Source: Pyrenula massariospora
Lineage: Eukaryota > Ascomycota > Eurotiomycetes > Pyrenulales > Pyrenulaceae
Reading direction: 5' to 3'
Assembly: GCA_021030905.1 (NCBI GenBank)
Contig: JAGFMI010000026.1
Location: forward strand, 310,001 to 374,000
DNA: 64,000 nt
Below, one piece after another: positions 7,447-9,265 of the stretch. The position numbers were made by a program, and so were the translations under genes. Every line of letters begins with the position of its first letter. Positions within the stretch are counted from its first letter, which is position 1. The notes below the pieces were generated by a model. That model searched no databases, had not been told where the DNA came from, and worked only from the letters and a program-made list of their open reading frames with translations.

Positions 7447-9265
7447 ATGTCTGTTCCAGATATGAACATCTTTGAGAAATGCACAGTGCTCGTAGTCGGC
7501 GGTGGACCTGGTGGCTCCTACTCCGCCGCAGCTTTAGCAGGTGAAGACATCAGTGTTATCTTGCTTGAAGCGGATACATTCCCAAGGTAATTCGTCCTCT
7601 AAGACAGCCCATGCTTGTTTCCGTTCCTCGGTTGTAATATCCGACTTCAGCCTTCTCGATATTGAACCGGGATTGAAATGAGCATCTTCTAACTAAGGTA
7701 GATATCACATTGGAGAGAGCATGCTCCCTTTGATGTACACGGATTTCGCATCAAGGTGAGAAATCAAAAACTGCTTCGAGAATTTCCCGGTTGGCTAATT
7801 GTTCTGATAGAATGGTGGCGCCTTCAGGCTCAGCTGGCCCTGTCCCGAGACCTGTAAGTACATTCATACAAGCTTCCTTGAGTTCTTACGAAAAGCTAAT
7901 TCACACCGTAGACACCGACTTCATCGCCGCCGGTGGCCCAAACGGTCAATACTGGAATGTTGTCCGATCCGAAGCCGATGATATAATCTTCGGGCACGCT
8001 GGAGAGAGCGAGGCTAAAACCTTCGACGCTACCCGTGTCGACAGCATCGAATTTGAGCCGACCACCCAGGACAAGTATGAAACCACGAAATCTGAACTTC
8101 CCAGCCCAGGGAAGCCTGTGTCCGCCTCGTGGTCCCGCAAGGACGGCAGCAAGGGCGTTGTCAAATTCGACTACTTGATCGATGCCAGCGGACGAACTAG
8201 CCTTGTTAGCACCAAGTATCTGAAGAACCGCCGATACAACCAAGGATTGAAAAACGTTGCCAGCTGGGGATACTACAAGGGCGGTGGTACCTATGGCATT
8301 GGTACTTACAAGGTTGGCTCTCCGTAATTTGAAGCCTTGAAAGGTAAGATTTCTTTGCCAGAGTTCTCACTGCATTGAATGTCACGAGCAACAAGGCTGA
8401 CAATCTTTAGATGCGAGAGGCTGGATCTGGTTCATTCCCCTCCACAACGACACTCACTTTGTCGGTATTGTCATGAACCAAAACCTGGCCACTGCCAAGA
8501 AAAAGGAGATGGATTCTCCCTCTAGCAAAGACTTCTACATGAAGTCCCTCGACCTCGTTCCTGGGATTAAGAAGCTCCTCTCCGAGGTCCAGCTAATCTC
8601 TGACATCAAGTAAGCATCTGACTGGTCTTACAGCGCTTCTTCTTATGCCTTTCCGAATGTGCGCATCGTCGGCGACGCAGGCCGCTTCATCGACCCCTTC
8701 TTCTCCTCGGGCGTGCATCTTGCTTTGGCCAGCGCCTTGTCGGCCGCGACGACCATTTCCGCGTCCATTCGAGGGGATACCAACGAGCAATCCGCCGCTT
8801 CTTGGCACTCGAAGAAGGTCGCAGAGGTTATACACGATTCTTGTTAGTCGTGCTAAGCTGTCTCAAGCGGATCCGGTCTCAGGACGAGCCTGTCCTTGAC
8901 AACTTTGACGAGAACAGCTTTGAACGAGCTTTCGACTTGTTCAGACCCAGTAAGCTTCCTCCGTAGTCTCGGATCTGGTTTGTCACCTTTTATGACTAAC
9001 CCAATTTACAGTCATCCAAGGCACCGCCGACGCCGACGTCAAAGGCAAGCTCACCCAATCCCAAATCTCCAAATCCCTCGACTTCTGCTTCCGTGCCTTC
9101 GCCCACGTCCCCGTAGAAGAAAAGAACGCGCTCATCAAGAAACTCAAGCCCATCGGCCTCGACGACCCGACCGCCGACGACGAGGAGAAGACGAAGGAGG
9201 GGAAGGAGGTGATAAACGGGAAGGCGCCTACGGTGAAAGTGGACGAAATTTCCGTCGCTGCGTAG
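7447..9265 (+). pseudogene. flavin-dependent halogenase, multiply disrupted
   Basis: Homologue of fungal FADH2-dependent halogenases that chlorinate phenolic polyketides. Recognisable blocks run end to end: GGGPGGSYSAAAL (FAD), FPR|YHIGESMLP, NGGAF, WNVVRSEAD, DYLIDASGR, GWIWFIPLHN, RIVGDAGRFIDPFFSSGVHLA, and the C-terminal helical part to TAG at 9263-9265. Exons inferred: 7447-7586, 7702-7755, 7811-7853, 7912-8343, 8411-8949, 9012-9265. Lesions: (a) about 7729, a stretch of roughly 14 residues expected between SMLP and FDVHGF is missing and the frame shifts; (b) TAA at 8325-8327 where SPYFEAL is expected; (c) TAA at 8611-8613, in frame before ASDWSYS; (d) about 8826, a one-base loss shifts the frame before GYTRFLLVVLS. 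No splice choice I tried rescues (a)-(d). Confidence 0.9.

What the first reader, a model, noticed from the sequence alone, without database searches (positions are those of the whole stretch)
7447..9265. Halogenase gene dead by four separate lesions yet still alignable end to end
The whole flavin-dependent halogenase can be read across six exons, but it carries a frame-shifting loss of ~14 residues at the FAD-proximal SMLP...HGF segment, two in-frame TAA codons (8325, 8611) and a one-base frameshift near 8826. Splice sites are still good and the C-terminal part is undamaged, so inactivation looks fairly recent. The lineage probably once chlorinated a phenolic metabolite.
Basis: partly seen in the sequence, partly recalled or inferred. 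Interest (0 to 1): 0.75.

Follow-up and report, generated by a model that had tools for sequence, protein, structure and literature searches.

The report
Dead halogenase beside an intact methyltransferase
A fungus carries the wreck of a gene for a chlorine-adding enzyme next to an apparently intact gene for a methyl-adding enzyme; in many related fungi the two are fused into one protein, so the site suggests how one half of a two-step pathway can die alone, although a dead pathway gene is in itself ordinary.

Summary
A six-exon RadH-like flavin-dependent halogenase lies at 7447-9265. Exon 2 is 43 nt shorter than in an intact paralogue, in-frame TAA codons stand at 8325 and 8611, and the frame breaks near 8826; all five introns keep GT..AG. 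The C-terminus is not undamaged: a segment matched in 180 of 187 relatives is missing, a fifth lesion. The pieces depart at 12 of 107 near-invariant columns; no intact relative of 184 exceeds 6.

Trees of both genes place the pair with unfused Penicillium proteins, sister to a clade of mostly fused halogenase-methyltransferases of the AoiQ/Dia5 type. No ketosynthase, Lactamase_B or FAD_binding_4 match lies within 200 kb. Five other halogenase loci remain in the genome; one was spliced in full and is intact.

Best reading: an orphaned, unfused relative of AoiQ in which the halogenase died while the methyltransferase stayed constrained. "Phenolic metabolite" is only loosely right: AoiQ chlorinates an aliphatic side-chain carbon of a phenolic isocoumarin. 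New member of a known kind; interest modest.

The parts
7447..9265 (+). Halogenase pseudogene, six exons (7447-7586, 7702-7755, 7811-7853, 7912-8343, 8411-8949, 9012-9265)
   Evidence: RadH matches; tblastn alignments; introns
7702..7755 (+). Exon 2, 43 nt shorter than in the intact C30 paralogue; frame broken
   Evidence: Exon lengths against the sequence
8325..8327 (+). In-frame TAA in exon 4
8611..8613 (+). In-frame TAA in exon 5
8826..8829 (+). Change of reading frame in exon 5
   Evidence: Two tblastn pieces in different frames meet here
9012..9265 (+). Exon 6, lacking a C-terminal segment that most relatives have
   Evidence: 180 of 187 relatives carry it; no counterpart at 9001-10320
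10308..11598 (+). Intact O-methyltransferase gene, exons 10308-10448, 10502-10752, 10800-11233, 11285-11598 (379 aa)
6520..6991 (-). C-terminal remnant of an MFS transporter, head to head with the halogenase
   Evidence: Matches only residues 465-600 of a 602-residue own-genome stretch with MFS_1

Best explanation
The locus is an orphaned remnant of a biosynthetic cluster of the dia/ngv kind. It holds an unfused tandem of a flavin-dependent halogenase and an O-methyltransferase that correspond to the two halves of the fused enzyme AoiQ/Dia5. When functional, the halogenase would have chlorinated a polyketide-derived intermediate and the methyltransferase would have O-methylated the same scaffold (inferred from relatives; substrate unknown). 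The halogenase then died (shown: stops, frame breaks, deletions, decay at conserved sites). The transporter beside it lost its front part (shown by comparison with one own-genome relative). The methyltransferase stayed open and conserved (shown by sequence) and probably still works, on an unchlorinated product or in another pathway (inferred).
For: Lesions. The exon 4 piece groups with six unfused proteins, three of them named Penicillium (SH 98; SH-aLRT 95 with four of them), and that group is sister to a clade of 25 fused and 13 unfused rows (99). The methyltransferase groups with five Penicillium proteins (98) as sister to a clade of 31 fused and 8 unfused rows (99; 93 and 97, where I had left out 18 of the 70 nearest rows). 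Gene order and strand match the domain order of the fusions. P. nalgiovense is described with separate ngvE and ngvF (PMC13301986, passages). Decay differs: halogenase 12 of 107 conserved columns, 0 of 184 intact rows as bad; methyltransferase 2 of 71, 10 of 47 relatives as bad or worse. Branch lengths agree: halogenase exon 4 0.39 against about 0.19 in Penicillium, methyltransferase 0.22 against about 0.26.
Against: No call shows the two genes from one Penicillium species: the halogenase group names paradoxum, nalgiovense and arizonense, the methyltransferase group robsamsonii, frequentans, odoratum, longicatenatum and verhagenii. That P0087 is NgvE is my inference. Taken singly, exons 5a and 5b score best with fused proteins and exon 5c with an Aspergillus and a fused protein; exon 5b joins the Penicillium group at only 65. 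No dia core enzyme was found nearby. The two conservation tests use different thresholds and relatives. A free choice of GT..AG introns could still read 87% of the homologous bases in frame (no chance control was run).
Confidence: 0.68

Rival explanations
1. Assembly errors: the gene is intact in the living fungus and the lesions come from sequencing or assembly.
For: No reads or cDNA were available; a 37.8 Mb genome in 33 contigs could be a long-read assembly, in which single-base indels occur (inference).
Against: Long open frames all around; 43 missing bases, a missing C-terminal segment and decay at conserved columns are not indel noise; the methyltransferase 1 kb away is clean.
Confidence: 0.04
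2. The gene is still expressed through altered splicing and makes a shorter, perhaps functional protein.
For: With any GT..AG introns of 40-200 nt allowed, one path reads 1274 of 1457 homologous bases in frame. Ten candidate introns across the stop at 8611 have a GTRNG donor.
Against: No chance control was run, so the figure carries little weight. None of 137 candidate introns across the stop at 8325 has a GTRNG donor. The path drops parts of conserved exons, and the exon 2 and C-terminal losses remain. Decay at conserved columns fits loss of function.
Confidence: 0.05
3. The methyltransferase is not a partner: it belongs to another pathway and lies next to the dead halogenase by chance.
For: No ketosynthase, Lactamase_B or FAD_binding_4 match within 200 kb (hits are lower bounds); further right the window holds mostly housekeeping genes.
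Against: It is among the closest unfused relatives of the methyltransferase half of AoiQ-type fusions, in the same order and strand. In 5 of 11 assemblies for which the listings show locus tags of both a halogenase and a methyltransferase the tags are consecutive (by eye).
Confidence: 0.1
4. The whole remnant, methyltransferase included, is decaying, and the methyltransferase is simply not yet hit.
For: The transporter next to the pair is truncated and the pair is orphaned.
Against: The methyltransferase has no disabling lesion over 1140 coding bases, normal conservation (2 of 71 columns) and no lengthened branch.
Confidence: 0.2

Closest known systems
NgvE and NgvF of Penicillium nalgiovense (dia-type cluster)
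   Same: Described as separate halogenase and methyltransferase genes (PMC13301986, passages); the exon 4 piece is 72% identical to a P. nalgiovense protein (P0087) that I infer to be NgvE.
   Different: Here the halogenase is dead and no cluster core enzyme was found nearby. No call compared the methyltransferase with NgvF by name.
AoiQ of Aspergillus oryzae and Dia5 of Trichoderma reesei
   Same: Same two activities in the same order; the fused relatives form most of the sister clade in the trees of both genes.
   Different: Those are one fused protein of about 1000 aa (PMC9144378, passages); here two genes 1.04 kb apart, one of them dead.
RadH (PDB 8gu0)
   Same: Best match among solved structures for both pieces tested.
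   Different: An intact standalone enzyme. The window pieces are closer to the AoiQ-type proteins: exon 5b is 80% identical to P0111.

Membership tests
Fungal RadH-like flavin-dependent halogenase (as a pseudogene) | Sequence homology over the catalytic domain | tested here: met
Fungal RadH-like flavin-dependent halogenase (as a pseudogene) | An open reading frame for the whole domain | tested here: not met
   Stops, frame breaks and missing segments; so it is a pseudogene of the family, not a working member
NgvE/NgvF-type unfused pair | Halogenase groups with the Penicillium unfused proteins | tested here: met
   Exon 4: SH 98, SH-aLRT 95; exon 5b only 65
NgvE/NgvF-type unfused pair | Separate methyltransferase gene of the matching clade next door | tested here: met
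AoiQ/Dia5 fused halogenase-methyltransferase | Both domains in one polypeptide | tested here: not met
   Halogenase ends with TAG at 9263-9265; the methyltransferase has its own start at 10308
dia-type gene cluster | PKS, beta-lactamase-like and FAD-oxidoreductase genes in the cluster | tested here: not met
   Nearest PF00109, PF00753 and PF01565 matches on the contig are about 207, 223 and 221 kb away. The SDR and the zinc-cluster regulator were not sought.
dia-type gene cluster | Production of chlorinated isocoumarins | not testable with these tools
   No metabolite data

The most novel reading that the evidence does not exclude
The locus keeps the pre-fusion arrangement of the AoiQ-type enzyme, and because the halves stayed separate the halogenase could be lost while selection kept the methyltransferase. 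The fungus would then make an unchlorinated, methylated product, or the methyltransferase was recruited elsewhere; fused relatives could not shed one activity as cleanly.
Probability: 0.35. Interest if true: 0.5.

Novelty: new member of a known kind. Interest (0 to 1): 0.35.

Why it matters
Dead tailoring genes are common. The interest lies in the comparison: an unfused pair, sister to a studied fused enzyme, with one half dead and the other apparently constrained. It makes testable whether fusion ties chlorination and methylation together. Chlorination of the side chain and methylation are both reported as crucial for plant growth inhibition by 8-methyldichlorodiaporthin, a product of the A. 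oryzae dia cluster (PMC13273347, abstract and passages), so losing chlorination alone would be expected to change such a product's activity. One paper reports that Gaeumannomyces dia-like clusters lack an aoiQ orthologue (PMC11905480, passages), so absence of this step is not without precedent, although a G. tritici fused protein (P0146) is among my own hits.

Tried and rejected
RIP as the cause: the dinucleotide indices of the pseudogene lie within the 5-95% range of window slices. Naming the fungus: no 5.8S match; left open. A direct Pfam scan of the transporter remnant gave only a sub-cutoff ABC-3 hit; comparison with an own-genome relative settled it. Pfam on single halogenase pieces: only NAD_binding_8 on exon 1 passed its cutoff; the other pieces gave sub-cutoff hits or none. 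Looking for the missing dia genes: PF00109, PF00753 and PF01565 gave nothing near. dN/dS: not run, no orthologous fungal DNA held. Papers: searches (20 of 60 listed; 3 of 3; 25 of 121; 12 of 12; 12 of 55) showed, by title and start of abstract, none on a pseudogenised fungal halogenase; these are listings only. My first methyltransferase tree used 52 rows and left out unfused rows that fall among the fused ones; one search repeats it with all 70 rows of the clade plus 4 outgroup rows and gives the same placement.

Full report
What is there. The window is G000:C18:310001-374000 of a 37.8 Mb fungal genome in 33 contigs. At 7447-9265 on the plus strand lies a six-exon flavin-dependent halogenase pseudogene. 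Exon 4 and part of exon 5 match the solved structure RadH (8gu0) at E 1.5e-45 and 5.5e-24. The introns are 115, 55, 58, 67 and 62 nt, all GT..AG.

Lesions. Against the intact C30 paralogue (61% identical in exon 4) exon 2 is 54 nt instead of 97, a frame-breaking loss of 43 nt. TAA codons stand in frame at 8325 and 8611, and homology changes frame at 8826-8829. A fifth was missed: a 53-residue C-terminal query from P0111 finds at least 35 residues in 180 of 187 relatives, has no hit in 3 of the 183 relatives longer than 450 aa, and has no credible counterpart at 9001-10320 of the window. The pieces depart at 12 of 107 columns that are at least 97% conserved; among 184 intact rows (183 proteins over 450 aa and C30) the median is 1 and the maximum 6. 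Three of the 12 lie in exon 6, where the alignment is least sure; without it the count is 9 of 99. Exon 5b has 0 of 29, so decay is uneven.

Is it an assembly error? Neighbouring frames are open over 1319 and 1298 codons just left of the window and over 677, 653 and 581 codons inside it. I think error unlikely, but no reads were available.

Could splicing skip the lesions? None of 137 candidate introns across the stop at 8325 has a GTRNG donor; 10 of 43 across the stop at 8611 do. If any GT..AG intron of 40-200 nt is allowed, one path reads 1274 of 1457 homologous bases in frame. I ran no chance control for that, the path needs introns that I did not see in relatives, and it leaves the exon 2 and C-terminal losses. 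RNA would decide.

Neighbours. From 10308 to 11598 an O-methyltransferase of 379 aa is open over four exons, matches PF00891 and aligns over its whole length at 70% with a Penicillium robsamsonii protein. On the minus strand upstream, 6520-6991 matches only residues 465-600 of a 602-residue own-genome stretch that carries MFS_1. Left of the window lie an NRPS module, an ABC transporter and an aldo-keto reductase that reaches into it; a HET gene lies at 976-2937. Further right are a P450, an FAD enzyme and mostly housekeeping genes.

What family. Searches with the C30 protein and with P0111 listed 120 of 1660 and 120 of 2270 hits, 187 distinct proteins. Summed over the pieces, the best six are unfused: three named Penicillium (paradoxum, nalgiovense, arizonense) and three unnamed; fused proteins of about 960-990 aa follow. 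Of the 187, 41 carry a match to the methyltransferase. Piece by piece, exons 4 and 6 prefer the Penicillium group, exons 5a and 5b fused proteins, exon 5c an Aspergillus and a fused protein in a tie, exon 1 a mixture. In trees exon 4 joins the Penicillium group (SH 98; 95); exon 5b does so weakly (65). In one search (63 rows) the group is sister, at 99, to 38 rows of which 25 are fused and 13 are not; some of the 13 may be incomplete gene models (inference). The methyltransferase tree agrees: with five Penicillium proteins at 98, sister at 99 to 39 rows, 31 fused and 8 unfused (74 of the 142 rows). A second fusion, in two Hypoxylon proteins, lies apart in both trees. So both genes point to an unfused lineage beside the fused one. 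That this is the pre-fusion state, not a later split, is the simpler reading but is not proved. The Penicillium species named for the two genes do not overlap in the listings.

What is known. AoiQ of A. oryzae and Dia5 of T. reesei are fused halogenase-methyltransferases of the dia cluster, and P. nalgiovense has separate ngvE and ngvF (PMC13301986, passages). AoiQ is reported to dichlorinate an aliphatic carbon of diaporthin-type isocoumarins (PMC9144378, passages). That the hit P0087 is NgvE is my inference. The nearest PF00109, PF00753 and PF01565 matches on this contig are about 207, 223 and 221 kb away (these searches give lower bounds). The SDR and the regulator of the cluster were not sought. 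So this is a remnant or a dispersed pair, not a cluster.

Did the two genes fare differently? The methyltransferase departs at 2 of 71 columns that are at least 95% conserved; 10 of 47 relatives (those at least 50% identical, of 141 rows) do as badly or worse. Its branch is 0.22 against about 0.26 on the Penicillium side, while the exon 4 branch of the halogenase is 0.39 against about 0.19 (a row with only 28% of the columns). The thresholds of the two column tests differ, so they are not strictly matched.

Age. Two stops correspond to about 50-63 neutral substitutions, 3-4% of 1740 nt, with 95% limits of about 0.3-13% over the transition/transversion ratios tried. This is a rough guide, not a date.

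Other halogenases. Five further loci (C30, C33, C10, C31, C1) are 53-62% identical in exon 4, one C1 stretch 49%. C30 was spliced in full and is intact. In C10 and C31 the tblastn alignments show stops only in intron-like inserts; in C33 and C1 the long exons are free of stops but the short exons 2-3 were not resolved. C30, C33 and C31 have a ketosynthase match within about 15 kb. Halogenation as a capacity was probably not lost.

Verdict.

Noticed in passing
L030 1237-4116 and 4848-6661 (G000:C1, about 119-125 kb): A halogenase paralogue about 0.7 kb downstream, on the same strand, of a monomodular synthetase with AMP-binding, PP-binding and thioesterase domains.
   Followed up: partly
G000:C33, about 660-670 kb (L027): A halogenase paralogue with a PF01565 oxidoreductase match at 664 kb and a ketosynthase at 669.5 kb: a likely chlorinated-polyketide cluster.
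   Followed up: no
whole genome G000: 115 exon-level ketosynthase matches (several can belong to one gene, and the list includes fatty acid synthase types), which suggests a large polyketide repertoire.
   Followed up: no
P0077 and P0177 (Hypoxylon): Halogenase-methyltransferase fusions that lie apart from the AoiQ-type clade in the trees of both domains: perhaps a second, independent fusion.
   Followed up: partly
P0146 (Gaeumannomyces tritici): A 985-aa protein with both halogenase and methyltransferase domains, although a paper says the Gaeumannomyces dia-like clusters lack an aoiQ orthologue; it may lie outside the cluster.
   Followed up: no
G000:C18:300326-308967 (L025), left of the window: A single-module NRPS (A-T-C, 1319 codons) and an ABC transporter (1298 codons), about 8-17 kb from the pseudogene; relation unknown.
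   Followed up: no
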